A stretch of 15,348 bases of DNA from NCBI GenBank assembly GCA_046497505.1, contig JAWOFN010000065.1, positions 1 to 15,348 on the forward strand, given 5' to 3'. This stretch comes from JAWOFN01 sp046497505 [NCBI: bacterium]. Its GTDB lineage: Bacteria > Blakebacterota > Blakebacteria > Blakebacterales. Made by a program: the position numbers and the translations under genes. Positions 1,006 to 15,252 of this stretch are shown here, one piece after another (the first letter of the stretch is position 1; each line of letters begins with the position of its first letter). Below the pieces are notes generated by a model that made no database searches, was not told where the DNA came from, and worked only from the letters and a program-made list of their open reading frames with translations.

Positions 1006-2774
1006 AACGGCCAGACGACCGGGACGAGCAGCACGATCCCTGCCATCACCAGGATGGTGAGCGGGAGCCCCAGCCGAGCGTAGTCCCCGAAGCGGTAGCC
1101 GCCGGGCCCGTAGACCATCGTGTTGGTCTGGTAGCCGATGGGGGTCATGAAGGAGGTGGCAGCGGCCAGCATCAGGCCCAAAGCGAAGACGCGGGGGTCG
1201 GCACCGATCTGCTCCGCCGAGGCCAGGGCGATGGGGAAGACCAGCACGGCCGCGGCGTTCTTGGTGATGAACTCCTTGAGGATCGTGACCGCGAGCACGA
1301 TGCCCAGCAGCACACCGTGGGCCCCAAGGAAGGAGAATCCGGCCACCAGCCCGTGGGCCAGCCGGTCCGCCAGCCCGGAGGTCTCCACCGCCGCTCCCAG
1401 ACCGAAGGCCGCCCCGATCAGGATGATCACGTCCATCTGGACCGCGTCCCGGGCCTCGCCCGGGGTGAGGACCCCGGTGGCCACCAGGGCGAAGGCCGCC
1501 ACCAGGGCCGCCTGCACGATGGGCAGGATGCCGGTGGAGGCGGTCGCCACCAGGCCGGCGGCGATGAGGCCCACCACCCAGCCCTTGCCCGAGACCAGGG
1601 GCGGGGTCCCTCCCAGGCGTGAGACCAGCAGGAAGTCGTTCCGGTTGCGCCAGCGCTCCCCGAACCCCGGGTCGGTGAGCAGCAGGAGCGTATCGCCCAG
1701 CCGCAGGGGGATCTCGCCCAGCTTGCCCGCCACCCGCTGGCCGGCCCGGTGGATGGCCAGCACCGCCGCCTGGTAGGAGCCCCGGAAGTCGGCCTCCTTC
1801 AGCGTGGTGCCCAGCAGGGGGGAGTCGGCCCCCAGGACCACCTCGTAGAAGGTGTGGCGGGCACTCCGGAAGTGGTCCATGTGCTCCTGCTCGGTGGACT
1901 CCAGCCCGCTCATGCGCTGCAGGTCGACCACATCGTCCGCCCGGCCCACGAACACCAGCCGGTCGCCCGGCTGCAGGACCGTCTCCGGCGTTACGGGTGC
2001 GATCGACTCGCCGTCCCGGTCGACCTCCACCAGGAAGACCCCTTCCAGGTGGCGCAGGCCCCCGTCGGCCACCGTCCGGCCCACCAGGGGCCCATCTTCC
2101 TTCACACGCATCGTGACCACGAACTGGCGCACCTGTTCGGGTTCCAGTTCCTTCCTCGCCGCGCGCCGGGCCGGGAGCAGCCGGGGAGCGAGCAGGATGA
2201 GCGCGGCCATCCCGGCGGCGGCGATGGGCAGCCCGACCCGGGTGACCTCGAACATGCCGATGGGCGCGAAGCCGTGGTCCTGCAGGAGCCCGGAGACGAT
2301 GAGGTTGCTGGCCGTGCCGATGACCGTGACCAGACCGCCCAGGATGGCCGCGAAGGAGAGGGGCATGAGGAGCGTGGAGGGGGAGATGCCTCTCCGCTCG
2401 GCCCACTCGGAGACCTGGGGCACCAGCATGGCCACGATGGGGGTGTTGTTGAGGAAGGAGGAGGCCGCGGTCACCGGGAGCAGGAGCCGGCTGAGGGTCC
2501 GGCGGTCGGAACCGCCCGGGCCCATCGTCCGCCGGAGCATCGGCTGCAGCGCCCCGGTCTTCTCCACGGACCGGGCCAGTACGTAGAGGGCGGCGATCGT
2601 GATGGGAGCGGGGTTGCTGAACCCCGAGAAGGCCTGCCGGACGTCGATGATGCCGGCGACCAGGAGGACCACGGTGGCCCCCAGCACCGCGGCCGAGGGC
2701 GCTACCAGGTCCCGCATCAGCAGGAAGACCATGGCCGCGAGTACGGCCACGATGAACCATTCCTGGGGACTCAA
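1002..2774 (-). CDS. SLC13/DASS-type anion permease with two RCK_C (TrkA_C) domains, likely sulfate transporter
   Basis: This 590-residue inner-membrane protein has hydrophobic segments at residues 1-200 and 400-590 around a soluble insert at about 215-390. Family hallmarks are SFLNNTP (106-112), GTASNLI (153-159), the re-entrant segment KNAAAVLVFP (505-514) and SFMTPIGYQTNTMV (541-554), which form the substrate and cation site of SLC13-type symporters. The insert reads as two tandem RCK_C domains (VTMRVKEDGPLVGRTV onward, then GADSPLLGTTLKEADF onward), which usually bind small ligands and gate transport. The start is TTG at 2774. An AGGAG site lies nine bases upstream and overlaps the stop of the sulfate adenylyltransferase/APS kinase gene, so the two are translationally linked, and this context makes sulfate the best substrate guess. 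The start register matches the paralogue at 6542-8311 almost residue for residue. The gene ends in a 4-base overlap with the convergent de-N-acetylase gene. Confidence 0.9.
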   Translation of the reverse strand: MSPQEWFIVAVLAAMVFLLMRDLVAPSAAVLGATVVLLVAGIIDVRQAFSGFSNPAPITIAALYVLARSVEKTGALQPMLRRTMGPGGSDRRTLSRLLLPVTAASSFLNNTPIVAMLVPQVSEWAERRGISPSTLLMPLSFAAILGGLVTVIGTASNLIVSGLLQDHGFAPIGMFEVTRVGLPIAAAGMAALILLAPRLLPARRAARKELEPEQVRQFVVTMRVKEDGPLVGRTVADGGLRHLEGVFLVEVDRDGESIAPVTPETVLQPGDRLVFVGRADDVVDLQRMSGLESTEQEHMDHFRSARHTFYEVVLGADSPLLGTTLKEADFRGSYQAAVLAIHRAGQRVAGKLGEIPLRLGDTLLLLTDPGFGERWRNRNDFLLVSRLGGTPPLVSGKGWVVGLIAAGLVATASTGILPIVQAALVAAFALVATGVLTPGEARDAVQMDVIILIGAAFGLGAAVETSGLADRLAHGLVAGFSFLGAHGVLLGIVLAVTILKEFITKNAAAVLVFPIALASAEQIGADPRVFALGLMLAAATSFMTPIGYQTNTMVYGPGGYRFGDYARLGLPLTILVMAGIVLLVPVVWPF

Positions 2775-2783
2775 GCCTGTGGT

Positions 2784-2788
2784 CTCCT
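2784..2788 (-). promoter_or_regulatory. Ribosome binding site AGGAG for the SLC13 permease
   Basis: On the minus strand AGGAG lies nine bases before the TTG start at 2774 and overlaps the TAG stop (2789-2787) of the upstream sat-cysC gene. It supports the non-ATG start and indicates coupled translation of the two genes. Confidence 0.75.
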
Positions 2789-4520
2789 AGCTGTTGTTGG
2801 CACTGGGCCCCAGATATCCCTCCTTCTCCAGGTGGAGCAGGATCTTCTGGGTGGCCTCGTCCGGGCTCACGTTCGTGGTGTCGATGACGATGTCCGCGTC
2901 CTCCGGCTCCTCGTACGGGTCGGAGATGCCGGTGAACTCCTTGATGATACCGGCCCGGGCCTTGGCGTACAGCCCCTTCCGGTCCCGCTCCTCGCAGACG
3001 GCCAGCGGGGTGGCCACGTGGACCAGCTGGAATGCACCGCCGTTCTCCACGACCTCGCGTACGGATTTGCGCGTGGCATCGTAGGGGGCGATGGGGGCGC
3101 AGATGGCGATCCCGCCGTTCTTGGTGATCTCCGAGGCCACGAAGCCGATCCGCTGGATGTTCAGGTCGCGGTGCTCCTTGGAGAAGCCGAGTTCGCTGGA
3201 GAGGTTCTTCCGGACGATATCCCCGTCCAGCAGGGTGACGGGCCGCCCGCCCATCTCGAGCAGCTTGACCATCAGGGCGTTGGCCAGCGTCGACTTGCCC
3301 GAACCGGAGAGGCCGGTGAAGAAGACGGTAAGGCCCTGCCGGTGCCGGGGCGGGTGGCTCTTCCGCAGTTCCTTCACCACCGCCGGGAAGCTGAACCAGT
3401 GGGGGATCTCCCGCCCCTCGTTCAGGCGCCGGCGCAGCTCGGTGCCCGAGATGCTCAGGGTCCGCATCTCCTCGGGGACCTCGTCCACCGGCATGTACTC
3501 GTCCCGCTCCTCCACGTAGACCATGAGGCGGAAGGGCACCATGGTTACCCCGATCTCCTCCTCGTGCTCCTTGAATAGGTCTTGCGCCTCGTAGGGGCCG
3601 TAGAAGGCCTTGCCCTTCGAGTCCGAGCCGGGCCCGGCGTGGTCACGTCCCACGATGAGGTGGGTGCAGCCGTGGTTCTTGCGGATGATGGCGTGCCAGA
3701 CCGCCTCCCGGGGACCGCCCATCCGCATGGCCAGGTTGAGCAGCGCCAGCTTCACCGTGGCCTTCGGGTACTGCGGTAGCAGGGCCTGGTAACAACGGAC
3801 GCGCGTGTAGTGGTCCACATCCCCCGGCTTGGTCATCCCCACCACCGGGTGGATGAGGAGGTTGGCCTCCACCTCCCGGGCCGCCCGGTAGGTCAATTCC
3901 TGGTGGGCCCGGTGCATCGGGTTGCGGGTCTGGAAGGCCACCACCTTGCGCCAGCCCTGCTTCGCGAACTGCGTGCGCAGCTCGGCCGGGGTCATCCGCA
4001 GGCCCTTGAAGTCGTAGTGGTGGGGCATCTGGATGCCCTCCAGGGTCCCGGCCACGTACACCGGGTGGGTCCTGTTCAGCAGGTAGTCCACCCCGGGGTG
4101 CTCGGGGTTCGTGGTACCGAAGACCTTCTTCGCCTCCTCCTCCCGGTCGGGCTCGTACATCTCTTCGATGGTGAGGGCGGCGACCATGACCCCCTCTTCG
4201 TCCCGCAGGGCCATCGACTGGCCGGTCTCCAGCTCACCGGCCAGCTCCTTCGGGATGTCGAGCACGATGGGCATGGGCCAGAGGGTGCCGTCGGCCAGGC
4301 GCATCTCATCGCGCACCTCTTCGTAGTCCTCCTGTCCCAGGAATCCCCGCAGGGGGGAGAAGCCCCCGTTGAGAAGCAGCTCGAGGTCGCAGGTCTGCCG
4401 TTCGGTGAGGTCCCAGGAGGGCCAGTCGCGGGAGGCCTCTTTGATCTCGGCCACACGCTCTTCGTCTGCCATCAGGTCCACGAGTTCGCCGCCGTGCGGC
4501 TTGATCAGGCTGTCCGGCAC
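2787..4520 (-). CDS. sat-cysC: Bifunctional sulfate adenylyltransferase / adenylylsulfate kinase
   Basis: This 577-residue cytoplasmic enzyme has an N-terminal ATP sulfurylase (about 1-385) and a C-terminal APS kinase (about 396-570). The first makes adenosine 5'-phosphosulfate (APS) from ATP and sulfate; the second phosphorylates APS to PAPS. The sulfurylase carries QTRNPMHRAH (197-206) and GRDHAGPG (291-298), the nucleotide- and sulfate-binding motifs. The kinase has an intact P-loop, GLSGSGKS (403-410), then DGDIVR (432-437), RDLNIQRIGF (451-460) and KGLYAKARAG (515-524). All key residues seem present, so both activities are expected; the order and length are like the Aquifex-type fusion. 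The start is GTG at 4520 with GGAGAG eight bases upstream (4529-4534). It is followed after 12 bases by an SLC13 permease, giving a sulfate import-and-activation pair. The product could feed cysteine synthesis or sulfation; no PAPS reductase or sulfotransferase is in the window. Confidence 0.96.
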   Translation of the reverse strand: MPDSLIKPHGGELVDLMADEERVAEIKEASRDWPSWDLTERQTCDLELLLNGGFSPLRGFLGQEDYEEVRDEMRLADGTLWPMPIVLDIPKELAGELETGQSMALRDEEGVMVAALTIEEMYEPDREEEAKKVFGTTNPEHPGVDYLLNRTHPVYVAGTLEGIQMPHHYDFKGLRMTPAELRTQFAKQGWRKVVAFQTRNPMHRAHQELTYRAAREVEANLLIHPVVGMTKPGDVDHYTRVRCYQALLPQYPKATVKLALLNLAMRMGGPREAVWHAIIRKNHGCTHLIVGRDHAGPGSDSKGKAFYGPYEAQDLFKEHEEEIGVTMVPFRLMVYVEERDEYMPVDEVPEEMRTLSISGTELRRRLNEGREIPHWFSFPAVVKELRKSHPPRHRQGLTVFFTGLSGSGKSTLANALMVKLLEMGGRPVTLLDGDIVRKNLSSELGFSKEHRDLNIQRIGFVASEITKNGGIAICAPIAPYDATRKSVREVVENGGAFQLVHVATPLAVCEERDRKGLYAKARAGIIKEFTGISDPYEEPEDADIVIDTTNVSPDEATQKILLHLEKEGYLGPSANNS

Positions 4521-4681: not shown

Positions 4682-6313
4682 TCAGTGCGGGTCAGGCCCA
4701 CCACCCGTCTCCGGCACCGTGTCTGCGGCCGTCGCCGCCCGGTCCTCCTGCTCCCCCCGGAAGAGGTAGACGGTACCGATCGGGAAGCAGCGCCGGTCGG
4801 TGGGGGGTACCCTCTTCAGGAGGGTCCGCGGGGAGACCAGGTAGTCCCGGGGATGGGTGCCGTTCAGCAGGACCAGGGAGCCCCCCCGGCGGCGGAGCAG
4901 GTCCACCACCTGTTCCACCTCGTCCTCGCCCCCCTCCAGCGGCTCGTCCTTGAAGACGTCCCAGGCCCGGGGGAGCAGGCGGGCCGGGCGGCCGGTGGCC
5001 AGGTAGACGGCATCGGCCGCGTTGGAGAGCACCGGCAGGTCGGGGGGGAGCCGCTCGAGCCACGCCATGATGGGGGCCTCCTGGATCCGCTCGGAAGCGA
5101 GCCCGAGTCCCTCCTCCCGCGCGGTCCGCACCACCTCGATCCCCTCCCCCAGTTTCAGCATGCCCAGCACGGCCAGCAGGGTGAGGAGCATCACCCCCTC
5201 CCGCTCACCGAGCACCCGGTGGCGGACCACCCGCTCGGCCCACCACACCGCGGCGAGGAAACCGAGCAGGTAGAGCGGCCGCAGCAGGCGCTCGTCGAAG
5301 GGGATGTTGGCGTAGACCAGGGTCCGCGCGGCCAGCAGGGCCGCAACATAAGACGCTCCGACGAGGAAGAGGAGCAGGGGCAGCGAGGGGCGGTCCCTGC
5401 CCGGGCGGCCGGCGGTCCGGAAGGCGAGACGGGTCAGCACGATCCCCGCGACCACGGCGCCGAGGAGCAGGACCGCCAGCAGCAGGTGGATGGGCAGCCC
5501 CCGCGGGAAGAACCAGGCCGCCAGGGTGTACGCGAGGTCCTTGAGATCGGTGAGCGTGGGGGGGTGGATACCCAGGGAGGCGGCGTGCGGGCCGGCCTCC
5601 CGGGGGACGGTGAGCAGCTTGTAGAAAAGGGCCGGCGCCATGGCCAGGACGGCGGCACCCGCGGCGCGCCCCAGGCGGCCCGGATCCTCCTCGTCGCCCA
5701 GGAGCAGCACCAGGAAGAGGGCCGGACCCAGGAAGAGCCCGACGTAACGGACCAGGGCGGCGAGGGCCGCGGTGAGGACGAGCCCCGCCAGCAGCAGCGC
5801 GCTCCTGCGTTCCGTCCAGGCGGTCACCAGCAGCAGGAAGGTCAGGAGGAGGGCGAGGAAGAGCCCCTCGGAGAGGAGCATGAGGAGCTGCTCGTGCACG
5901 TCGAAGAAGATCGCCAGCAGCAGGGTGCCGCCCGCAGCGGCGGGCGGCGAGACGGCGCTGCGTACCAGCAGGAGGTAGAAGAGGAGCGGGATCAGCCCGG
6001 CGAGCAGGGCGTGTAGCGACCTCGCCGTCTCGGAAGGTGTGAGACCGACGAGGGACCCGGTGGCCAGCACGATCGGATAGCCGGGGGGGAAGTGGGAGAG
6101 GAGGACCTGCTCCCCCCTCCCGTCGTGGACGCGGAGGCCTTCGCCCCCGGTCAGGCTGCGTGCGGCCTCCAGGTAGACCGCCGAGTCGGCGGTCAGTCCC
6201 AGTCCCCGCGGCGTGGCGGTCCAGACCAGGCCCGCGGCCAGCACGGCCAGCAGGAGCACGGCCGCGTGGGAACGCAGGTCCCGGCCCTGTGGTCCCTCGT
6301 TCTCTCCGTACAT
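4682..6313 (-). CDS. Polytopic membrane protein resembling GT-C glycosyltransferases (ArnT/PMT-like)
   Basis: From the ATG at 6313 the product has 543 residues. There is a short charged N-terminus, a first hydrophobic segment at about 15-33, then an outward loop with LTADSAVYLEAARSL (40-54) and LLSHFPPGYP (71-80). About nine further hydrophobic segments follow to residue 390, then a soluble tail at about 400-543. An acidic residue in the first loop (here D43) and a multi-pass core are typical of GT-C enzymes, which move sugars from polyprenyl-phosphate carriers. The family resemblance is by layout and loop motif only, and the acceptor is unknown. A GTG at 6355 would add 14 arginine-rich residues but has no good ribosome binding site, so I prefer 6313, which has only a weak AGGCGG before it. 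The gene lies between two sulfate-block genes without an obvious sulfur role; it might build a sulfated surface glycan, which is speculation. Confidence 0.8.
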   Translation of the reverse strand: MYGENEGPQGRDLRSHAAVLLLAVLAAGLVWTATPRGLGLTADSAVYLEAARSLTGGEGLRVHDGRGEQVLLSHFPPGYPIVLATGSLVGLTPSETARSLHALLAGLIPLLFYLLLVRSAVSPPAAAGGTLLLAIFFDVHEQLLMLLSEGLFLALLLTFLLLVTAWTERRSALLLAGLVLTAALAALVRYVGLFLGPALFLVLLLGDEEDPGRLGRAAGAAVLAMAPALFYKLLTVPREAGPHAASLGIHPPTLTDLKDLAYTLAAWFFPRGLPIHLLLAVLLLGAVVAGIVLTRLAFRTAGRPGRDRPSLPLLLFLVGASYVAALLAARTLVYANIPFDERLLRPLYLLGFLAAVWWAERVVRHRVLGEREGVMLLTLLAVLGMLKLGEGIEVVRTAREEGLGLASERIQEAPIMAWLERLPPDLPVLSNAADAVYLATGRPARLLPRAWDVFKDEPLEGGEDEVEQVVDLLRRRGGSLVLLNGTHPRDYLVSPRTLLKRVPPTDRRCFPIGTVYLFRGEQEDRAATAADTVPETGGGPDPH

Positions 6314-6541
6314 GCGAAGCCGCCTGCGCTGAGACCTCCGGCGGAGGGATCCCACCGCCGGTGATGAGGGGCGATCCTACCCGGATGATATCCGGACCGT
6401 GTGAAAACTATGTCAGGATCTGTTGGCAGGGGAGGGATATCGAAGCGGCCGGGACGCCGCCCGGCGCTGGCCCGCCCTCGAGGGCCTGGTGACCCGCCTC
6501 CTGCACAGCCTGCTGGGCTGAGCCGGGAGGCGCATGGTCGT
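6314..6541. other. 228-bp gap between the SLC13 permease and the GT-C-like gene
   Basis: Apart from the palindrome at 6381-6395, this gap holds a small CAGCC-5-GGCTG hairpin (6506-6520) shortly after the permease stop and a CCCTCGAGGG palindrome near 6475-6484. Neither is followed by a T-run in the transcript direction. No gene was found in it. Confidence 0.5.
6381..6395 (-). repeat. Operator-like palindrome CCGGAT-GAT-ATCCGG upstream of the GT-C-like gene
   Basis: Two perfect 6-bp arms (6381-6386 and 6390-6395) with a 3-base spacer lie about 70 bases before the preferred start at 6313. On the minus strand a TATCAT hexamer (6390-6385) overlaps it and a CTGACA hexamer (6416-6411) lies upstream. 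The 20-base spacing between those hexamers is too long for a good sigma-70 promoter, so a repressor site over a weak promoter is only a possibility. Confidence 0.35.
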
Positions 6542-8311
6542 TCAGAAGGGCCAGACCACCGGGGCCAGCAGGACGACGACGACGACCACGGTCAGGGTCA
6601 GGGGCAGGCCCAGGCGGGCGTAGTCGGTGAATCGGTAGCCTCCGGGCCCGTAGACCATGGTGTTGGTCTGGTAGCCGATGGGGGTGAGGAAGGAGCAGGA
6701 GGCGGCCACCGCCACGGCCATGAGGAAGGCCCGGGGCTCGGCCCCCAGACCGGCGGCGACCGCCAGGGCGATGGGGAAGAGGATCACCGCCGCCGCGTTG
6801 TTCGTGATGACCTCGGTGAAGAGGAGGGTCACCAGCACCACGGCCAGCAGGGCCCCGGCGGGACCCAGCCCGCTGCTCACGGCCAGCAGCCCCCCGGCCG
6901 CCCGGTCGGCCAGGCCGGAGACCTCGATCGCCGAGCCCACCCCGAAGGCGCCGGCGATGACGAAGATCACGTCCAGGTCGATGGCGCTGCGTGCCTCCTC
7001 GGGGGTGAGCACCCCGGTGAGGATGAGCAGGAGCGCCCCGGCCACCGAGGTGTGGAGGATGGGGAGCAGGCCCAGGGAAGGGGGGAGGATGATCCCGACC
7101 GCGATGAGGCCCACGATCCAGGCGGTCGGGGATACGGTCCGCGGCCCCTCGCCGATCTCCGAGACGAGCAGGAAGTCGCCGCGGCCGCGCCACCGCTCGG
7201 CGAAGTCGGGGTCGGCGGCCAGCAGGAGCGTGTCCCCCAGGTGCAGCTTCACCGTGTCCAGCCGGGCCCGCACCGGCCGGCCCGCGCGGTGGATGGCCAC
7301 CACGGCCGCCTGGTAGCGGTTCCTGAAGCGGGCGAAGCGCAGCGTGCGGCCCAGCAGCGGGCTCGAAGCGCCGATGACCACCTCGAAGAAGGAGTGGCGC
7401 CCGCGGTCGAAGGGGGCTCCCTCCCGGCTCTCGGCCCGGTGCAGTCCCTCGGTGGCCACCAGGTCCACCACCTCGTCCGCCCTGCCCACGAAGGTCAGGC
7501 AGTCCCCGCCCCGGAGCAGGGTGGCGGGGCGTACGGGTACGATGATCTCCTCCCCCCGCTCGATCTCCACCAGCGAGACGTTGGCCAGGGAGCGGAAGTC
7601 CGCCTGGGCGACCGTGCGCCCGTCCAGGGCCCCGCCGGGGTCCACCCGCATGCGGGTGACGAACTCCCGGATCTGGCTGTCCAGGTCGCGGCGGGCGGGG
7701 CGCCGCTCGGGGAGCAGGACGGGACTGAGGAAGAGGAGCAGGACCAGGCCGGCCCCCGCGACGGGCAGGCCCAGCAGGGTGATCTCGAACATGCCGATCG
7801 GCTCGAGGCCGTGGCTGTGCATCAGCCCGGAGACCACCAGGTTCGTGGAGGTGCCGATGAGCGTGGCGGCCCCGCCCAGGATGGCGGCGAAGGAGAGGGG
7901 CATGAGGTAGCGGCTGGCCGAGACCCCCTGGCGGTCGGCCCACTCCCCCACCTGGGGGGTGAGCATGGCCACGATGGGGGTGTTGTTCAGGAACGCGCTG
8001 GCCGCCGATGCGGGGAAGAGCAGGCGCACCAGGGTGCGGTAGCGCCCGGGACGCTCCCCCAGGGTGCGGGCGAGCAGCGGTTCCAGCACGCCCGTCTCAT
8101 CCACCCCCCGGGCCAGCACGTAGAGGGCGGCCACGGTGATGGGGGCGGGGTTGCTGAAGCCCGAGAAGGCCTGACCGGCGTCGACGATGCCCAGGAGCAG
8201 GAGCACGGTCACCGAGCTTACCATGGCCGTGCCCGGGGAGACCCAGTCCCTGCTCAGGGTCACCACGGTAAGGACCACCACGATGAGGGTCAGCAGTTCC
8301 TGCTGCTCCAT
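6542..8311 (-). CDS. SLC13/DASS-type anion permease with two RCK_C domains (paralogue of the 1002-2774 gene)
   Basis: The product is 589 residues from the ATG at 8311. It is near-identical in plan to the permease at 1002-2774: SAFLNNTP (105-112), GTSTNLVV (153-160), a soluble RCK_C pair at about 212-388, NNAAAVILFP (504-513), and the shared tail YQTNTMVYGPGGYRF with PVVWPF at the very end. The frame stays open to 8443, but those 44 extra residues are proline- and arginine-rich and have no counterpart in the paralogue. The ATG at 8311 matches the paralogue's start exactly and is preceded by AGGAGG (8324-8329) twelve bases away. It is an inner-membrane, probably sodium- or proton-coupled importer of sulfate or another small anion. 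The upstream divergent region may control it; no sigma-70 promoter was recognised. The second SNT-type segment reads TNNAAAV here and TKNAAAV in the paralogue, which may tune substrate or cation use. Confidence 0.9.
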   Translation of the reverse strand: MEQQELLTLIVVVLTVVTLSRDWVSPGTAMVSSVTVLLLLGIVDAGQAFSGFSNPAPITVAALYVLARGVDETGVLEPLLARTLGERPGRYRTLVRLLFPASAASAFLNNTPIVAMLTPQVGEWADRQGVSASRYLMPLSFAAILGGAATLIGTSTNLVVSGLMHSHGLEPIGMFEITLLGLPVAGAGLVLLLFLSPVLLPERRPARRDLDSQIREFVTRMRVDPGGALDGRTVAQADFRSLANVSLVEIERGEEIIVPVRPATLLRGGDCLTFVGRADEVVDLVATEGLHRAESREGAPFDRGRHSFFEVVIGASSPLLGRTLRFARFRNRYQAAVVAIHRAGRPVRARLDTVKLHLGDTLLLAADPDFAERWRGRGDFLLVSEIGEGPRTVSPTAWIVGLIAVGIILPPSLGLLPILHTSVAGALLLILTGVLTPEEARSAIDLDVIFVIAGAFGVGSAIEVSGLADRAAGGLLAVSSGLGPAGALLAVVLVTLLFTEVITNNAAAVILFPIALAVAAGLGAEPRAFLMAVAVAASCSFLTPIGYQTNTMVYGPGGYRFTDYARLGLPLTLTVVVVVVLLAPVVWPF

Positions 8312-8323
8312 GGGTACCGGGTT

Positions 8324-8329
8324 CCTCCT
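8324..8329 (-). promoter_or_regulatory. Ribosome binding site AGGAGG for the upstream SLC13 permease
   Basis: AGGAGG on the minus strand lies 12 bases before the ATG at 8311. The spacing is a little long, but the perfect core plus the paralogue alignment favour this start over the longer frame reaching 8443. Confidence 0.65.
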
Positions 8330-8483
8330 CGAACGTCCTCGAAGCAGGCGGGACCGGGGTCCCGGGAAAGGGGCGCGGGGAGGAGTGTACATCAGGGAAG
8401 GAGAGGGCGGGGAAGGGGAATCGACCGGTGAGCACACCTTCATCTATTCAGGACCCGGAAGTCTTTTTCCCCTTCATGGGGGT

Positions 8484-8502
8484 CGGAACGGCCCGATTTC
8501 CG
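8484..8502 (+). promoter_or_regulatory. CGGAA-N9-TTCCG inverted repeat, copy A (candidate activator site)
   Basis: CGGAA (8484-8488) and TTCCG (8498-8502) are perfect arms around CGGCCCGAT. The 19-bp unit matches copy B at 16 of 19 positions. Its centre lies about 250 bp upstream of the start point predicted from the sigma-54 promoter. Confidence 0.6.
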
Positions 8503-8505
8503 TGG

Positions 8506-8524
8506 CGGAACGACCCGCATTCCG
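8506..8524 (+). promoter_or_regulatory. CGGAA-N9-TTCCG inverted repeat, copy B (candidate activator site)
   Basis: CGGAA (8506-8510) and TTCCG (8520-8524) flank CGACCCGCA. It repeats copy A with a 22-bp period, close to two DNA turns, so both copies would face the same side of the helix. Confidence 0.6.
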
Positions 8525-8545
8525 TCCCGGCCGGTACACCCCGGG

Positions 8546-8581
8546 CGGAAGGTCCCTTCACCCCCCTGCAGGGACCTTCCG
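8546..8581 (+). promoter_or_regulatory. 12-bp perfect inverted repeat CGGAAGGTCCCT / AGGGACCTTCCG (copy C)
   Basis: The arms (8546-8557 and 8570-8581) are perfect over 12 bp around a 12-base spacer and begin and end with the same CGGAA/TTCCG half-sites as copies A and B. Because it lies between divergent genes, no transcript needs ending here, and no T-run follows on either strand. An operator or enhancer role is more likely than a terminator. Its centre is about 180 bp upstream of the predicted start point. Confidence 0.6.
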
Positions 8582-8663
8582 GCGCGCTCTCTCGAGGGTG
8601 CTATCCCGCTGCCGGGGAGTGACTTATGAACCTCCCATTCAAACCCGGAAGCAGCGGTCCGCC

Positions 8664-8679
8664 CGGAAAGAGGGTTCCG
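8664..8679 (+). promoter_or_regulatory. CGGAA-N6-TTCCG inverted repeat, copy D
   Basis: CGGAA (8664-8668) and TTCCG (8675-8679) are separated by six bases, about 72 bp upstream of the predicted start point. The shorter spacing makes it a weaker family member; a lone CGGAA half-site sits just before it at 8646-8650. Confidence 0.4.
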
Positions 8680-8717
8680 CGGCCGCCCCCGATCCCCCGG
8701 GCCCTCCCGCCGGTATC

Positions 8718-8733
8718 TGGCACGGCGCTTGCA
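8718..8733 (+). promoter_or_regulatory. Sigma-54 (RpoN) -24/-12 promoter
   Basis: TGGCACG (8718-8724), four bases, then TTGCA (8729-8733) matches the TGGCACR-N4-TTGCW consensus at every defined position, with exactly ten bases between the GG and GC dinucleotides. It lies upstream of the TonB-dependent receptor and points at it. The -12 element predicts transcription starting near 8744, giving a leader of about 75 bases. Such promoters are silent without an ATP-driven activator bound upstream, which the repeat cluster at 8484-8679 could recruit. Confidence 0.85.
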
Positions 8734-8751
8734 TGTTAACAGTAGTTGACA

Positions 8752-8783
8752 CCTCCTGCCTCAGAGCGAGAGTCGGCAGGGGG
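8752..8783 (+). other. Leader hairpin near the 5' end of the receptor operon mRNA
   Basis: CCTCCTGCC (8752-8760) can pair with GGCAGGGGG (8775-8783) as a 9-bp stem with one G-U pair and a 14-base loop. It starts about eight bases after the predicted transcription start, so it could shield the 5' end from decay. It does not cover the ribosome binding site at 8805-8810. Confidence 0.45.
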
Positions 8784-8804
8784 CGAGCCATGCCATGCAT
8801 TCTT

Positions 8805-8810
8805 GGAGGA
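8805..8810 (+). promoter_or_regulatory. Ribosome binding site GGAGGA for the TonB-dependent receptor
   Basis: GGAGGA ends eight bases before the ATG at 8819. It decides the start: the in-frame ATG at 8795 lies upstream of this site and would put eight extra residues in front of the signal peptide. Confidence 0.8.
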
Positions 8811-8818
8811 AAGACTCC

Positions 8819-11800
8819 ATGAGTAGACGACTGATTGGAGCCTTGGCCGTTTTCGCGGCGCTCGCGCTCCTGGCCCCTGCCGTCGTGCAGGCCCAGGGGA
8901 CGACGGGCACGATCCGCGGCAAGGTCACCGATTCAACCACAGGTGAGCCCCTGGCGGCGGTGAACGTGGTCGTTTTCGAGACCGACGGGACCGCTACCAC
9001 GATGGGCGCGATGACCAACGCGGAGGGCGACTACGTGATCGTCAACGTACAGCCCGGCCGCTACGACCTGCGCGCCTCCATGATGGGATACAAGCAGGTC
9101 CTCGTGGAGGACTTCCTCGTGACGGTGGGCGTGAGCGCCATCCGCAACTTCGAGCTCGAACCCACGGTCCTCGACGTGGGTGAGACGGTCACGGTCACCG
9201 CGGAGCGCGAGCTCATCCAGCGCGACGTCTCCGGGACCCAGGAGTCGTACACCATCGAGGAGATGGAGCGGATGGCGGTGAGCAGCACCTCCGACATCCT
9301 GGCGCTGCAGACCAACACCGCCACGCTCCAGAACAACTTCGTGGACGACATCGAGGGCTACTACGACCGGGGCCTGGAGCAGGTGCACATGCGCGGCGGT
9401 CGGAACGCCGAGGTGGCGTTCATGATCGACGGCATGCAGGTCACCAACCTGGTCTTCGGGGGGCAGGCCGCCCAGATCAGCCCCTTCTCGCTGAGCGAGA
9501 TGGTGGTCATGGCCGGCGGCATGAGCGCGGAGTTCGGCAACGCCATGTCCGGTGTGGTCAACATGGTCACCCGGGAGGGCGGTACGAGCTACGACGCCAA
9601 CATGCAGATCCTGAGCAGCGAGTTCAGCGGGGCGGACCAGGACGCGGTGATGAACAACACCAGCATGGACGGCTACGTGGGCGGTCCGATCCCCATGGTG
9701 GACCGTCTCACCTTCTTCGCCTCCGGGTCGGCCTCCCACGGTCGTGACTACCTGGTCGAGAAGGACGACATCCTCTTCGACTACAAGGCCAACCCGCTCG
9801 ACCCCGAGTGGACGCGGGACCCGGGCATCGAGTACTACGGTCTGCCCGACGACCTGGCCGACTTCGATCCGGACGAGCACAACCCCTACCTGCAGCGGGG
9901 GCCGGACGGCCGGCGGATCCTCCCCGGTGACCACCTGGAGGGCTTCCTGGGGTACGGGTTCGACAACCGCTGGAGCGGCATGCTGAACCTCACCTACAAG
10001 CTGAGTCCCAGCATGAAGATCACCGGCTCCGGCAACGTCAACGGACGCTGGGGCACCCCGTACACCAGCTCGTGGCGCTATGCCATGTTCTGGGGCATGC
10101 CGTCCGACTTCGAGGACTGGCACGTCCTGGGATATCCCGCCTACGACACCATCGACCCCAGCACCGGTGAGATCATCACCGACCCGGCGACCGGGCTGCC
10201 CATCACCGACCCGAAAAACAGCGGCAGCCACGTCATCAGCGGGTCGGGCCTCACCGACATGGAGAACGAGAAGAACATCCTCTTCCACGACAACCGGAGG
10301 GCGGCGTTCGTCTGGACCCACCAGATGAGCCAGGCCACCTTCTACAGCGTGCGGGGATCGCACTACACCTACGACCGCACGATGCGGGTGAAGCGGTTCG
10401 TGAACGAGGAGGGCTGGGCGCGGCGCTTCGAGCACGTCTACCGCGGAAGGGACCCGATCCTCGACCCCGACACCAATGAGGTCATCGGGTACGAGCCCCG
10501 GGACCCGTACTGGACACCGGAGGACCCGATGCACCGGGTGACCCTCCTGCCGATCCCCTACTCCGCCGACACCTACGGGGAGCGGGCCCACGGCTACTTC
10601 CCCATGGGGGGCGCGGCGGCGGGCAACGACGCCTCGGACCGGTACTACACCAACCACATCGACGTCACCCGCACGCTGAAGGCGGACATCACCTCGCAGG
10701 TCACCTCGCACCACCAGGTGAAGACGGGGTTGATCTACAACTACCTGACCCTGGACCAGTACGACCTGCAGCTGCTCTACCTGGACCCGCCCTACGAGGT
10801 GGACTACCGGCACAGTCCCTGGGAGGTGGGGATCTACCTCCAGGACAAGATCGAGTACGACTTCCTGATCCTGAACGTCGGCGCCCGTTACGACGGTGCC
10901 AACGCGGGCGAGATCTCGTACTGGACCGGGCCGCGGGATGTGACCGACCCGGAGACCGGGCTGCCGGTCATCGACCCGGGCGACCCGGAACAGGCCCCGG
11001 TGACCTCGGGTGAGCTGCGCAGCCAGATCTCACCGCGGCTGGGTGTCTCGCACCCGGTCACCGACGCCTCGGTGATCTACTTCAACTACGGGCACTTCTT
11101 CCAGAACCCGGTCTACCGGAACCTCTACCTGGAAGGGACGCTCCACGACTCGAGTCCGCTCATCGGCAACCCGAACATGGAGAACGAGAAGACCGTCTCC
11201 TACGAGTTCGGGTACAAGCAGCAGTTCGGTGAGCTGATCGCGCTGGACGTCTCGATGTGGGCCAAGGACACCTCGAACATGGTGGGCTCGGAGCGGGTCC
11301 CCGCGTGGTTCCAGGGTCAGACCAACCCGTACGGATACACCACGTTCGTCAACTACGACTATGCCTCGTCGAAGGGTGTGGACGTCTCGCTGAGGAAGCG
11401 CTACAGCGACCTCTGGGCGGGGACCATGAACTACTCCTTCATGACGACCCAGTCGAACCGTGACGACCCGTGGTCGGGGTACCGGGAGGGCGACGACCTG
11501 GAGACCACACCGAAGCGCCCGCGGGTGCTGGGATGGGACCGGCCCCACAGCTTCAGTGCCAACGTGAGCATCAACGTGCCGGAAGGCGTGGGTCCCGAGA
11601 CCTTCGGGGTGCGGCCGTTCGAGAAGGTGAACGCGAGCCTCATCTACCGCGCCAGTGCGGGACGGCCGTACACGCCGACGACCTTCGACCGCCGCCTCGA
11701 CCCCAACTCGGGCCGTCGTCCCTGGACCTTCCAGTGGGACGCGAGGGTATACCGGGACTTCGACACGTTCGGGATGCGGTTCAGCGTCTTCGCGGACGTC

Positions 11801-11962
11801 CGTAACCTGTTCGACCGCAAGAACATCGTGAACGTCTACAGCCGCACCGGCAAGGCGGACGACCCCGGTCCCGACGCCACCGGATACAGCGACTCCTACG
11901 ACCGGTCGCACTACTACGGTACGCCCCGCAGGATCAACCTGGGTCTGCGGATCTACTTCTGA
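8819..11962 (+). CDS. TonB-dependent outer-membrane receptor with N-terminal carboxypeptidase-regulatory-like domain
   Basis: This 1047-residue protein begins with a signal peptide (MSRRLIGALAVFAALALL, cut likely after VQA at 25). A carboxypeptidase-D-regulatory-like beta-sandwich follows at about 29-113 (TIRGKVTDSTTGEPL, GRYDLRASMMGYK), then a TonB-box-like stretch ETVTVTAE. A plug lies at about 150-255 (VHMRGGRNAEVAFMIDG, NAMSGVVNMVTREGG). The remainder is a beta-barrel rich in aromatic residues, ending in LGLRIYF with the terminal phenylalanine usual for barrel insertion. It would import a substrate across the outer membrane using TonB-ExbBD energy. The layout is SusC-like or Oar-like, and the substrate is not evident. 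No cysteine was seen. Predicted surface loops carry repeated DPxTG-type segments (about 445-460 and 705-722). It is the first gene after the sigma-54 promoter, and a secreted partner follows after 20 bases. Confidence 0.93.
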   Translation: MSRRLIGALAVFAALALLAPAVVQAQGTTGTIRGKVTDSTTGEPLAAVNVVVFETDGTATTMGAMTNAEGDYVIVNVQPGRYDLRASMMGYKQVLVEDFLVTVGVSAIRNFELEPTVLDVGETVTVTAERELIQRDVSGTQESYTIEEMERMAVSSTSDILALQTNTATLQNNFVDDIEGYYDRGLEQVHMRGGRNAEVAFMIDGMQVTNLVFGGQAAQISPFSLSEMVVMAGGMSAEFGNAMSGVVNMVTREGGTSYDANMQILSSEFSGADQDAVMNNTSMDGYVGGPIPMVDRLTFFASGSASHGRDYLVEKDDILFDYKANPLDPEWTRDPGIEYYGLPDDLADFDPDEHNPYLQRGPDGRRILPGDHLEGFLGYGFDNRWSGMLNLTYKLSPSMKITGSGNVNGRWGTPYTSSWRYAMFWGMPSDFEDWHVLGYPAYDTIDPSTGEIITDPATGLPITDPKNSGSHVISGSGLTDMENEKNILFHDNRRAAFVWTHQMSQATFYSVRGSHYTYDRTMRVKRFVNEEGWARRFEHVYRGRDPILDPDTNEVIGYEPRDPYWTPEDPMHRVTLLPIPYSADTYGERAHGYFPMGGAAAGNDASDRYYTNHIDVTRTLKADITSQVTSHHQVKTGLIYNYLTLDQYDLQLLYLDPPYEVDYRHSPWEVGIYLQDKIEYDFLILNVGARYDGANAGEISYWTGPRDVTDPETGLPVIDPGDPEQAPVTSGELRSQISPRLGVSHPVTDASVIYFNYGHFFQNPVYRNLYLEGTLHDSSPLIGNPNMENEKTVSYEFGYKQQFGELIALDVSMWAKDTSNMVGSERVPAWFQGQTNPYGYTTFVNYDYASSKGVDVSLRKRYSDLWAGTMNYSFMTTQSNRDDPWSGYREGDDLETTPKRPRVLGWDRPHSFSANVSINVPEGVGPETFGVRPFEKVNASLIYRASAGRPYTPTTFDRRLDPNSGRRPWTFQWDARVYRDFDTFGMRFSVFADVRNLFDRKNIVNVYSRTGKADDPGPDATGYSDSYDRSHYYGTPRRINLGLRIYF

Positions 11963-11973: not shown

Positions 11974-11982
11974 CACATGACC

Positions 11983-14900
11983 ATGAGATTCTGGAAGAAA
12001 GCGACGAGTCGAGGGCTGCTGTTCTCGGCTTTCATCCTGTCGCTCACACTGGGACCCGCCGAGGTCTCAGCACAGAGCGGCAACGAATACATCGGGAAGA
12101 GCTGGGCAGAGATCCAGCAGGCCCTGCACGAGGTCCTCTTGACCCCCGAGCGGGGGGACGACATCCGGATCCTGGAAGCGATGCGGGAGATAGAGGACCC
12201 GGGGCGTGCCGGCGTCCCCTATGGACGGAGCGCCGACGAGCTGGACCGCGCGTTCGGGTACGTCTACGTCTCCGACCTGGAGGGGCGGATACACAACTTC
12301 CCCCACCAGGGTACGGACGGGATCAGCCCGGAGTGGTTCCCGGTCCCCGGCGGTACGTCCCGCTACCGGATCCACTATGCCACCACCCTGGCCGTGGGGG
12401 TCGAGGACGGCCCCTGGGGCGGGGCCACGGTGATCGAGAGCCTGGGGTACTACCAGGGGATCAACTCCTCCGACTGGGAGGCGAAGGACGGCCAGCGCGG
12501 CGGTGCCTTCGCCGATCCCCCCCAGCTCCGGTTCAGCTACCCCCTGATGGCCATCTCGAACCTCGAGGCGACCTGGCCCGAGAGCGGCTGGCCCGCCCCC
12601 GAGGACGTGGAGGCCGTATGGTGGGGCACGGAGACGTGGAAGAAGTGGGAACGCAGGGCGGAGGCGGAGCTGTACGGGGAGTTCGATGACAACCGGGCGG
12701 GCCGCGACGACGCGCCGGCCACCGAGTCGTATCCCCTGGGGATCGACGGCAAGATCCGCGCGCTGGCCTATGCGGCCTACCCGGCCATGTTCGTCCAGTA
12801 CGAGCTCACCAACACGAGCAGCCACGAGTACACCAACGTGTTCATCGGCTACCCGCACGTGCGTGACAGCCCCTGGGTGAGGACCTACTCAACCGGGTTC
12901 CCGCGCTGGGACGGCAGCCGCAACATGGTCTACGCCATCGGGAAGAACTACGACCCGGGCGCAGGCACCCACGAGGACTATTACAACCGGCCGGCATCCT
13001 TCGGCGGTCTGCTCTTCCTGGAGACACCGACGGGGTCCTTCAAGGCGGACGACCTGGGCAATTTCGTGGACCGCCCGGACTCGGTCCTCACGCGGCTCTC
13101 GCTGAGCCGGTACGGTGACCGGGTCACGCCGAGCGATCACAAGTGGAGCTACTACGCGGCCCTCTCGGGGGACGTGAGCTACTTCGAGGACCCCACGCAG
13201 GCGGTCGACCTGTGGAAGACCGGGCATCCCGGGCAGGCGGGTGCCCCGGTGCTGATGCAGACCGAGGAACATTACAACTACCTCGATTACGGCACGACCA
13301 CCCCGAGCGAGTCCGACATCGCGGGCGGTACGGCCAACAGCATCAACTACCCCTCGGCGGGACCCTTCACCTGGGGCCCGGGTGAGACCATCGATTTCGT
13401 GGTGGCCACCGTGGCGGGATACACCGAGCAGGACCTGCAGAAGACCGCGGACAAGGTGATCCGCAGCTACCAGGCGCAGTTCTCGGCCTCGGGTCCGCCG
13501 CCTTCGCCCCGGCTGCAGACGACGGGTGTCTCGGCGGGTCCGGCGGGCAGGGATTTCAACCCGAACATCCACGCCTATCCGATCCAGTACGTGGACTCGG
13601 GTTCCATCACCCTGACCTGGGACGGCTCGGAGGCGGAGAGCTACGCCGACCCCATCACCCTGAACAACGATTTCCAGGGCTACCGGATCTACCGCTCCAT
13701 GGACCGCGGTGCCACCTGGGGCACCCCGGTGACCGACGAGGAGGGGAACGTCGCCGCCTGGAAGCCGATCGCCCAGTTCGACCTCGATGACGGGGTCACG
13801 GGCAGGCTCGACGCCGGCTCCTACCTCAGTCTCGGGGAGGACACCGGCCTGGTGCACACCTGGACGGACGAGAACATCCGCGACGGGATCGAGTACTGGT
13901 ACGCCATCACCGCCTATGACTACGACCCCTCCCAGGGTGCGGACAACCCCACGTTCGAGGGGTCCCGGGGATCGAACCCGAACTCCCCGAACGTGCTGGG
14001 CATCATCGCCGGCGCGCGGCCCTCGGGCTTCAGCCCCGGCGCGGTCCTCGAAGGCGGCGAGCGTGCGGCGAGCACCGTCCTGAGCCCCCTCTCGGGTCCG
14101 AAGAACGACGGGACCGTCACCGTGGATGTGCTGGGAGACACCGACGTGGTGGGCGGGACCTACCGTCTCACCTTCGCGGACACGGCGGTCTACGGGACGG
14201 CGGACTACACCAACACGCTCGGCGTGACGCTGACGAACACGACCACCGGCGATGTGCTCTACGAGAGCATGCTCCCGGAGGACGTGGACTTCGGTACCGA
14301 CCTGCTCCCGCTCACCGAGGGCTTCAAGGTGAACGTGGAGACGGGCTGGAACGCGGTGAGCAGCGTGGGCGACCTCTACGAAGCGTCCATGCCGGACTCG
14401 GTGACCGACGTCTACGGGTACGATTTCTACCCGGCCCAGTTCGTGTTCGGGTCCACGCTCAACATCTACTCGCTGAGCGATGCCTCGACGGGCTTCTTCG
14501 ACATCGAGGTCCGCTTCGACGGCACCGAGACCCAGAACGCGTACTACTACGACCGGACCGCCGGGTACGTCTACTTCGACTACGCGGAATTCCCCGGGAC
14601 GGTGTGGGATGTGAGCGACCCGGACGACCCGCGGCAGATCAACGTGTCGGTCGCCTCGGGCGGCGGGCCCAACTTCGACATCGATGCGGGTACGCGCTAC
14701 ATCCACTTCCTGAGTTCCGACTACTCGGGCGATACACCGGAGACCGTCTACACCACCGGAGCGATGTCCAACTTCGGTTCCCAGGACGCGAACTTCTTCG
14801 GCTGGTGGGACATGGCCGAGTCGGGCCAGACCATCGAAGCCGCCTACGGGCAGGTCGCGGCCCTCGAGTTCACCAACCCGGTCTCCCCGTCGAACGTGTA

Positions 14901-15252
14901 CGAGTTCACCACCGCCGCCGCGGAAGTGGTCCAGGAAGAGGTGGACCTGGACGAGGTCGTGGTGGTCCCGAACCCGTACTACGTGTTCGCCGAGTGGGAC
15001 AAGAACGTGAACCAGCGGAAGATCCAGTTCCGCAACGTTCCGCCCAACAGCACGGTGGACATCTACACGCTCTCGGGTGAGCTCATCGCGAGCCTCGGGC
15101 ACGATGAGGAGTACAACTCCACCGAGATCGGCACCGTGGACTGGAAGATCTGGACGTACGAGTACACCGAAGCGGCCTACGGCCTCTACCTCTACGTCGT
15201 GAAGACGGCGGACGGGCAGAAGAAGGTCGGCAAGTTCGCGATCATCCGATGA
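11983..15252 (+). CDS. Large secreted multidomain protein with Fn3-like region and sorting-type C-terminal domain
   Basis: The 1089-residue product starts with a signal peptide (MRFWKKATSRGLLFSAFILS, cut near VSA-QS around residue 31). Residues about 35-530 form a Trp/Tyr-rich region I do not recognise. Residues about 535-655 look fibronectin-III-like (SGSITLTWDGSEAES, DFQGYRIYRSMDRGATW, EYWYAITAYDYDP). A second beta-rich stretch follows at 690-960. The last 100 residues (from VVVPNPYYVFAEW, through VDIYTLSGELIASL, to YGLYLYVVKTADGQKKVGKF) match the plan of the type IX secretion/FlgD-Ig-like C-terminal domain of FCB bacteria. It is probably exported and held on the surface, working with the receptor encoded 20 bases upstream, perhaps as a capture lid or binding partner. 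No cysteine and no catalytic motif was seen. The role is inferred from context. Confidence 0.88.
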   Translation: MRFWKKATSRGLLFSAFILSLTLGPAEVSAQSGNEYIGKSWAEIQQALHEVLLTPERGDDIRILEAMREIEDPGRAGVPYGRSADELDRAFGYVYVSDLEGRIHNFPHQGTDGISPEWFPVPGGTSRYRIHYATTLAVGVEDGPWGGATVIESLGYYQGINSSDWEAKDGQRGGAFADPPQLRFSYPLMAISNLEATWPESGWPAPEDVEAVWWGTETWKKWERRAEAELYGEFDDNRAGRDDAPATESYPLGIDGKIRALAYAAYPAMFVQYELTNTSSHEYTNVFIGYPHVRDSPWVRTYSTGFPRWDGSRNMVYAIGKNYDPGAGTHEDYYNRPASFGGLLFLETPTGSFKADDLGNFVDRPDSVLTRLSLSRYGDRVTPSDHKWSYYAALSGDVSYFEDPTQAVDLWKTGHPGQAGAPVLMQTEEHYNYLDYGTTTPSESDIAGGTANSINYPSAGPFTWGPGETIDFVVATVAGYTEQDLQKTADKVIRSYQAQFSASGPPPSPRLQTTGVSAGPAGRDFNPNIHAYPIQYVDSGSITLTWDGSEAESYADPITLNNDFQGYRIYRSMDRGATWGTPVTDEEGNVAAWKPIAQFDLDDGVTGRLDAGSYLSLGEDTGLVHTWTDENIRDGIEYWYAITAYDYDPSQGADNPTFEGSRGSNPNSPNVLGIIAGARPSGFSPGAVLEGGERAASTVLSPLSGPKNDGTVTVDVLGDTDVVGGTYRLTFADTAVYGTADYTNTLGVTLTNTTTGDVLYESMLPEDVDFGTDLLPLTEGFKVNVETGWNAVSSVGDLYEASMPDSVTDVYGYDFYPAQFVFGSTLNIYSLSDASTGFFDIEVRFDGTETQNAYYYDRTAGYVYFDYAEFPGTVWDVSDPDDPRQINVSVASGGGPNFDIDAGTRYIHFLSSDYSGDTPETVYTTGAMSNFGSQDANFFGWWDMAESGQTIEAAYGQVAALEFTNPVSPSNVYEFTTAAAEVVQEEVDLDEVVVVPNPYYVFAEWDKNVNQRKIQFRNVPPNSTVDIYTLSGELIASLGHDEEYNSTEIGTVDWKIWTYEYTEAAYGLYLYVVKTADGQKKVGKFAIIR

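What the first reader, a model, noticed from the sequence alone, without database searches (positions are those of the whole stretch)
8456..8679. Cluster of CGGAA/TTCCG half-sites forming an enhancer-like array
Within 224 bp there are six CGGAA and four TTCCG pentamers; by base composition well under one of each is expected. Eight of them pair into four inverted repeats: two 19-bp copies spaced by 22 bp, one with 12-bp arms, one with a 6-base gap. Copies A and B and both arms of C share the longer half-site CGGAA[C/G]GNCCC. The array sits 70-250 bp upstream of the sigma-54 start point, where activator enhancers normally lie. I know of no named activator with this exact site.
Basis: partly seen in the sequence, partly recalled or inferred. 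Interest (0 to 1): 0.75.

Follow-up and report, generated by a model that had tools for sequence, protein, structure and literature searches.

The report
Enhancer-like site cluster before receptor gene
A cluster of repeated, mirror-image DNA sites lies upstream of a sigma-54-type promoter of an outer-membrane receptor gene in a poorly known bacterial group; a core part of it recurs beside the same gene in related genomes, so it is probably the docking site of an unidentified activator protein.

Summary
Window 8456-8679 carries 6 CGGAA and 4 TTCCG (1.35 expected in 8444-8800; 0 of 5,000 shuffles reached 10), 262-43 bp upstream of an exact -24/-12 element (8718-8733) of a TonB-dependent receptor gene. 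Every CGGAA-N6-TTCCG (3, up to one mismatch) and CGGAA-N9-TTCCG (2, both exact) dyad of the window lies in the array, with two abutting tandem duplications found nowhere else in the window. Four genomes are held for this phylum. In three, one module opens with this 16-bp dyad: before the receptor in G002 and G004, and beside the receptor's usual neighbour at a contig end in G003. The window holds a fourth, weaker copy: its best match starts at 8456, and the dyad-to-promoter distance equals that of G002 (262 bp). One close homologue (L004) lacks both module and promoter. Best reading: upstream activating sequence for an unidentified sigma-54 activator, enlarged in the window by local duplication. 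New member of a known kind; no activator assigned, no binding shown.

The parts
8456..8471 (+). dyad I, CGGAA-N6-TTCCC (one mismatch to CGGAA-N6-TTCCG); start of the conserved module
   Evidence: aligned without gaps to CGGAAAATATTTTCCG of L006 and L085 and AGGAAAAAATTTTCCG of L002
8456..8506 (+). diverged copy of the conserved module (GGAA....TTTTCC.C ... TT.CCGTG.C)
   Evidence: best of 30,594 positions (both strands) in the window for a profile of the three relatives; cmsearch best hit 8465-8506, E 0.046
8484..8502 (+). inverted repeat A, CGGAA-N9-TTCCG; its right half overlaps the conserved TT.CCGTG
8506..8524 (+). inverted repeat B, CGGAA-N9-TTCCG, abutting tandem copy of A (22-bp unit, 17/22)
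8546..8581 (.). inverted repeat C, 12 perfect arm bases (15 with one mismatch, 6 bases between); a stable hairpin if transcribed; no T run
8646..8661 (+). N6 dyad with one mismatch, in the first unit of an abutting 18-bp tandem pair (8644-8679)
8664..8679 (+). inverted repeat D, exact CGGAA-N6-TTCCG, in the second unit of the 18-bp pair
8718..8733 (+). -24/-12 (sigma-54 type) promoter element TGGCACGGCGCTTGCA
   Evidence: 0 mismatches; aligned with L002 and L006
8752..8783 (+). hairpin in the presumed 5' leader (9 pairs predicted); a hairpin at a like place in L006, L002, L004
   Evidence: energy not beyond shuffles
8819..11962 (+). TonB-dependent receptor gene, presumed target
   Evidence: Pfam TonB_dep_Rec_b-barrel 3e-27, Plug 3.2e-8, CarboxypepD_reg 1.1e-17; start at 8819 aligned with relatives
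11977..15252 (+). large partner gene downstream, presumably same operon (inferred)
   Evidence: no Pfam hit at 1e-4

Best explanation
The array is an upstream activating sequence (enhancer) of a sigma-54 promoter. A dimeric sigma-54 activator of the AAA+ type binds 16-bp dyads of the form CGGAA-N6-TTCCG and related half-sites 43-262 bp upstream of the -24 element, assembles there as a ring, and by DNA looping contacts RNA polymerase held at TGGCACGGCGCTTGCA to switch on the TonB-dependent receptor operon. The core module is ancestral in this small phylum; in the window's lineage the site cluster grew by tandem duplication (22-bp and 18-bp units), giving several dimer sites. Shown here: sequence anatomy, the promoter match, conservation of module and promoter in relatives, sigma-54 and activator genes in relatives. 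Inferred: which protein binds, activation rather than repression, looping, and the signal.
For: Exact -24/-12, its first base 100-103 bp before the start codon in window, L002 and L006 (arithmetic; aligned). All N6 (up to one mismatch) and N9 dyads of the 15.3-kb window lie in the array. A module with the dyad occurs in 3 of 4 genomes of the phylum; the model was built from these three copies, so their scores (E about 1e-17) are by construction, and what counts is that no second good copy exists (next independent hit E 0.11, inside an open frame). The dyad is the identical 16-mer in G003 and G004, and 0 of the other 384 genomes searched has it. Exact N6 dyads occur 17 times in the four genomes (reversed control 7); of the 15 places fetched, 13 lie in long open frames away from this locus and 2 are the receptor-locus dyads (L075, L085; the L085 one is overlapped by an open frame antisense to its neighbour). 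Window copy: rank 1 of 30,594 positions, cmsearch best hit at the same place, dyad-to-promoter distance 262 bp in both window and L002. The module goes with the receptor and not with the upstream neighbour: Pfam Phosphodiest gene in L006 and L085, a co-directional receptor copy in L002, a transporter in the window. L004, a close homologue in G002, has neither module (filters off) nor a good -24/-12; and none of seven other receptor-like contigs (G001 C167, C124; G002 C155, C244, C86, the last being L004; G003 C164, C7) bears a strict TGGCAYN5TTGC or the module. Substitutions in module columns 1-62 show no codon rhythm (7, 9, 8 variable columns), so it is not a hidden gene.
Against: No activator gene lies on the receptor contigs of G002, G003 or G004, and no N6 or N9 dyad (up to one mismatch) was found outside open frames in the 30 fetched of 48 activator loci, so no activator can be named. 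The TGGCAYN5TTGC pattern as a whole is not enriched in the four genomes (36 against 30 for the reversed control). Of the 30 such sites fetched of 36, only the G004 receptor site has more than 3 pentamers in 500 bp upstream (6), but within 300 bp it has 3 where four others have 2, so it stands out only at long range; the G002 receptor site has 3 in 500 bp, as two unrelated sites do. The window match to the module is weak: E 0.046 in 15.3 kb; 0.9% of 1,000 intergenic shuffles reach the 52-column score; the 70-column shuffle test was uninformative because scores were floored at zero; nhmmer did not report it. In L006 the module lies 379, not 262, bp from the promoter. The G003 copy is at a contig end, so its receptor gene and promoter are not seen. 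L001 shows no promoter, but its contig has only 288 bp upstream, too short to hold the module (362-482 bp upstream elsewhere); G001 as a whole had no module hit. Only 4 genomes exist for comparison, and none is held for the window itself.
Confidence: 0.55

Rival explanations
1. The dyads are operators of a non-sigma-54 regulator (a dimeric repressor or modulator that senses the receptor's substrate); the sigma-54 activator binds elsewhere.
For: Perfect short dyads fit many dimeric regulators (general knowledge); some sites lie close to the promoter (8646-8679, about 39-72 bp upstream of -24); no activator is linked to the locus.
Against: The conserved dyad sits 262-379 bp upstream of -24 in window, L002 and L006, a place more usual for activation than for repression (general knowledge; in Desulfovibrio most promoters lie within 100 nt of the closest activator site and four lie beyond 300 bp, PMC4641369 section 13); module and -24/-12 are both lacking in L004.
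Confidence: 0.22
2. The array is a by-product of local tandem duplication and G+C-rich composition and has no function in the window; only the promoter matters.
For: 22-bp and 18-bp abutting duplications; some 5-mer reaches 10 copies in 21% of shuffles; CGGAASGNCCC not conserved.
Against: 0 of 5,000 shuffles reach 10 for this pentamer; enrichment also upstream of the G004 homologue; conserved module in three genomes and best window match at its start.
Confidence: 0.14
3. The array serves the divergent SLC13/CitMHS-type transporter gene (start about 8309) rather than the receptor.
For: It lies between divergent genes.
Against: The neighbour is a different gene in L006/L085 and in L002 while the module stays beside the receptor (receptor not visible in L085); in L002 the upstream neighbour runs in the same direction; no sigma-70-like site found in 8300-8900 and no -24/-12 with up to 2 mismatches on the minus strand there.
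Confidence: 0.06
4. Inverted repeat C (8546-8581) is an RNA hairpin (terminator or leader element), not a protein site.
For: Folding z-score -3.1; 1 of 200 shuffles folds as well.
Against: No T run; it lies upstream of the inferred start point; the 4 Rfam matches listed up to E 5 are all far below their cut-offs. It applies to C only.
Confidence: 0.03

Closest known systems
Upstream activating sequences of sigma-54 activators (NtrC type; Desulfovibrio vulgaris sigma-54 regulome, PMC4641369)
   Same: Short dyads upstream of a -24/-12 with consensus tGGcacg / tTGCt (passage seen); distances from under 100 to over 300 bp occur (section 13 read)
   Different: Site sequence: CGGAA and TTCCG do not occur in the main text of that paper (its motif figures are not held). 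Here the conserved module is single-copy, not spread over a regulon
yGTCA-N6-TGACr inverted repeat predicted for the activator DVU2894 (PMC4641369, passage seen)
   Same: Same layout: five-base arms, 6-base gap, 16 bp
   Different: Different arms; no match with up to 2 mismatches in the array
NtrC site TGCACC-N5-GGTGCA (recalled consensus)
   Same: Dyad layout; multiple sites (recalled)
   Different: No match in the array with up to 3 mismatches

Membership tests
sigma-54 (-24/-12) promoter | TGGCACG-N4-TTGCW with GG and GC at fixed spacing | tested here: met
   0 mismatches at 8718-8733; consensus agrees with tGGcacg/tTGCt in PMC4641369
sigma-54 (-24/-12) promoter | Conserved before the orthologous gene | tested here: met
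   Present at matching position in 2 (L002, L006) of 4 close homologues with readable upstream DNA; not in L001 and L004
sigma-54 (-24/-12) promoter | rpoN in the organism | tested here: inconclusive
   Present in 4 of 4 related genomes; the window's own genome is not held
Upstream activating sequence of a sigma-54 activator | Dyad sites upstream of the promoter, usually several | tested here: met
   Three N6 and two N9 dyads plus palindrome C
Upstream activating sequence of a sigma-54 activator | Conserved together with the promoter | tested here: inconclusive
   Both in window, L002, L006; both missing in L004; L001 lacks the promoter but its contig is too short for the module; promoter not visible beside the G003 copy. 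Agrees as far as seen, but few cases
Upstream activating sequence of a sigma-54 activator | Bound by an AAA+ activator and needed for transcription | not testable with these tools
   Candidate activators exist in relatives (48 PF00158 matches in 4 genomes, some partial) but none is assigned
NtrC site | TGCACC-N5-GGTGCA (recalled) | tested here: not met
   No match in 8456-8679 with up to 3 mismatches
DVU2894-type site | yGTCA-N6-TGACr | tested here: not met
   No match in 8456-8679 with up to 2 mismatches

The most novel reading that the evidence does not exclude
A sigma-54 activator of a small candidate phylum recognises a CGGAA-N6-TTCCG dyad not seen in the papers searched, and is dedicated to a single outer-membrane receptor operon; in the window's lineage the enhancer has been built up by tandem duplication of 22-bp and 18-bp units into a multi-dimer array.
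Probability: 0.35. Interest if true: 0.45.

Novelty: new member of a known kind. Interest (0 to 1): 0.36.

Why it matters
It gives a concrete, testable cis-regulatory site for sigma-54 control of a TonB-dependent receptor in a phylum represented by only four held genomes, where regulatory sites can hardly be studied otherwise. The contrast between a single conserved module in relatives and an expanded, duplicated cluster in the window would be a small natural example of how an enhancer gains sites.

Tried and rejected
Longer half-site CGGAASGNCCC as the conserved unit: rejected, absent upstream of the relatives' genes and not enriched against its reversed control.

Genome-wide regulon: not seen at this sensitivity. 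The module occurs once in each of G002, G003, G004 and not in G001; a model that includes the window copy found nothing in 30 loci (L001, L004 and 28 of the 30 loci fetched around -24/-12 sites, the two receptor loci L049 and L061 left out). Exact N6 dyads: 17 in four genomes against 7 for the reversed pattern; 13 of the 15 places fetched are in long open frames away from this locus. Clusters of three pentamers: 46 in four genomes against 13 for the reversed pattern; of the 30 loci fetched of 46, 27 are in long open frames; the other three are two places, L137/L141, beside a gene with UvrA domains, and L150, which I read but did not follow. CGGAA-N{0,30}-TTCCG is commoner than its reversed control in all four genomes, which I take for codon composition (inferred); only part of that list was shown, so no gap-length distribution could be made.

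Hidden small gene: the module reads open in one frame in three relatives, but L002 has no ATG, GTG or TTG between the last stop and the module in that frame, and variable columns show no codon rhythm; rejected. The only further genome hit besides the palindrome's own reverse match (G003:C434, E 0.11) lies inside an open frame.

RNA element: Rfam gave nothing near a cut-off in 8300-8900; RNAalifold on the leader gave a poor alignment and no useful consensus.

Helical phasing of the pentamers: different best period for the two orientations with few sites; not used.

Literature: listings (20 of 186 shown; 10 of 24; 0 papers; 10 of 31); passages and section 13 of PMC4641369 and one passage of PMC3333781. 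No CGGAA-type activator site was seen in these; most subscription papers are not covered.

Changes made on re-checking: the absence of the module in L001 is no evidence, since that contig is too short; for this the confidence in the enhancer reading was lowered from 0.58 to 0.55. The comparison with seven other receptor contigs and the sorting of N6 dyads were added.

Full report
Setting. The window holds, around the finding, a minus-strand SLC13/CitMHS-type transporter gene (Pfam CitMHS 2.7e-83; longest frame to 8443, likely true start near 8309, by eye), an intergenic region of about 509 bp, a plus-strand TonB-dependent receptor gene (8819-11962; Pfam TonB_dep_Rec_b-barrel 3e-27) and a large downstream partner without Pfam hit. 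No whole genome is held for the window.

Observation. Ten in 8444-8800 compares with a mean of 1.35 and a maximum of 7 in 5,000 dinucleotide shuffles; the densest 224-bp stretch elsewhere in the window has 4. A stricter control is less kind: some 5-mer reaches 10 copies in 21% of 2,000 shuffles of this G+C-rich stretch. The stronger evidence is in the dyads: all three CGGAA-N6-TTCCG sites with up to one mismatch in the whole window (8456, 8646, 8664; 4 of 200 shuffles reach three) and both CGGAA-N9-TTCCG sites (8484, 8506; 13 of 200 reach two) lie in the array. A and B are abutting 22-bp tandem copies, 8644-8679 is an abutting 18-bp tandem pair, and no other place in the window reaches those thresholds. 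The -24/-12 at 8718-8733 matches the consensus exactly.

Relatives. A scan of genome contigs with the receptor found 21 loci. Seven of them (40-71% identity in the best segment) belong to three of the genomes now called G002-G004, and to G001; these four genomes are all that is held of their phylum. Their records bear different names (Latescibacterota, Zixiibacteriota, unnamed bacterium), so I do not name the phylum. Close homologues (59-65%) with readable upstream DNA are L001 (288 bp only), L002, L004 and L006; a further region, G003:C463 (L085), carries the Phosphodiest-family gene that neighbours the receptor in L006, and ends before any receptor. L002 and L006 carry -24/-12 elements whose first base is 100 and 103 bp before the start codon, as the window's is at 101. 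L004 and L001 do not show one.

Conserved module. L006, L085 and L002 share a 66-bp block that starts with CGGAAAATATTTTCCG (identical in G004 and G003; one mismatch to the dyad in G002) and continues to a TT.CCGTGTC box. A sequence-only model of the block finds its three source copies, as it must, and no second good copy in G001-G004 (a partial reverse match of the palindrome itself at E 0.54 and one hit at E 0.11 inside an open frame). The exact 16-mer is in 2 of 386 genomes searched, these two. Of exact CGGAA-N6-TTCCG dyads in general there are 17 in the four genomes (control 7); of the 15 fetched, 13 lie in long open frames away from this locus, and the other two are the receptor-locus dyads, one of them overlapped by an open frame antisense to its neighbour. 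In the window the best match of the three-sequence profile, among 30,594 positions on both strands, starts at 8456, and a covariance search with filters off puts its best hit at 8465-8506 with E 0.046, in the same register. The distance from the dyad to -24 is 262 bp in both the window and L002; in L006 it is 379. Against this: 0.9% of 1,000 shuffles of the intergenic region reach the 52-column score, the 70-column shuffle test is uninformative because scores were floored at zero, and nhmmer did not report the match. I noticed the resemblance in an alignment before building the 52-column profile, so that length was not chosen blind; the 66- and 70-column versions give the same best place. I take the window copy as homologous but diverged.

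What is and is not conserved. CGGAA/TTCCG is enriched upstream of the G004 homologue (8, expected 2.04, p 0.0005) and in the G003 region (4, expected 1.02, p 0.014), not significantly in G002 (3, expected 1.29, p 0.14), and is absent in L004 (0) and at chance in L001 (1). So the array in the window is an ancestral module plus lineage-specific sites, partly made by tandem duplication (inferred).

Function. The module goes with the receptor and not with the neighbour on the other side, which is a Phosphodiest gene in L006 and L085, a co-directional receptor copy in L002 and a transporter in the window. Module and -24/-12 are present together in window, L002 and L006, and both missing in L004. 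Seven other receptor-like contigs (G001 C167 and C124; G002 C155, C244 and C86, C86 being L004; G003 C164 and C7) carry neither a strict TGGCAYN5TTGC nor the module. L001 lacks the promoter, but its contig ends before the place where the module would lie, so it says nothing on the module. All four genomes encode sigma-54 and have 9-16 activator-domain matches each, some partial. None of these is on the receptor contigs, and no matching dyad outside open frames was found near the 30 fetched of 48. Of 36 TGGCAYN5TTGC sites in the four genomes 30 were fetched; only the G004 receptor site (L049, the same place as L006) has more than 3 pentamers within 500 bp upstream (6), though within 300 bp it has 3 and four others 2; the pattern itself is not enriched over its control (36 against 30). 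The most likely reading is therefore an enhancer for one dedicated, unidentified sigma-54 activator. In Desulfovibrio, most promoters lie within 100 nt of the closest activator site and four lie more than 300 bp from it (PMC4641369, section 13), so both the near (43-72 bp) and far (262 bp) sites fit. Binding, activation and the signal are inferred, not shown.

Novelty. The kind of element is well known. The site sequence was not seen in the listings and passages, a limited search. Interest is moderate: the array is real and unusual for this window, the core is conserved, but the mechanism is conventional and the activator is missing.

Noticed in passing
window 8752-8783; L006 2299-2327; L002 1867-1894; L004 1375-1408: A G+C-rich hairpin of 7-10 predicted pairs sits between promoter place and ribosome-binding site in the 4 homologues folded (L001 was not folded), with a T-A to C-G difference on both sides of one pair (by eye). 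Its energy is not beyond shuffles (z -0.1 to -1.0), and the automatic alignment shifts the window arm by one base.
   Followed up: partly
L002 1-4963 (G002:C117): Two receptor copies lie in tandem; the second has the -24/-12 and the module between them.
   Followed up: partly
window 1002-2774 and 6542-8443: Two transporters of the CitMHS/TrkA-C type flank an ATP sulfurylase-APS kinase fusion gene (2787-4520) and a gene with a weak PMT-type match (4682-6355).
   Followed up: no
L006 about 1913-1931, L002 about 1599-1617: Next to the 16-bp dyad the conserved module holds a second imperfect dyad, GGCACG-N7-CGTGTC (by eye), weaker in L085 and changed in the window.
   Followed up: partly
L137 1362-1560 (G003:C301): A cluster of CGGAA/TTCCG beside a gene with UvrA domains; no sign of a link to the receptor module.
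   Followed up: partly
L150 1500-1546 (G002:C179): A group of CGGAA/TTCCG outside long open frames, upstream of what looks like a gene start; not followed.
   Followed up: no
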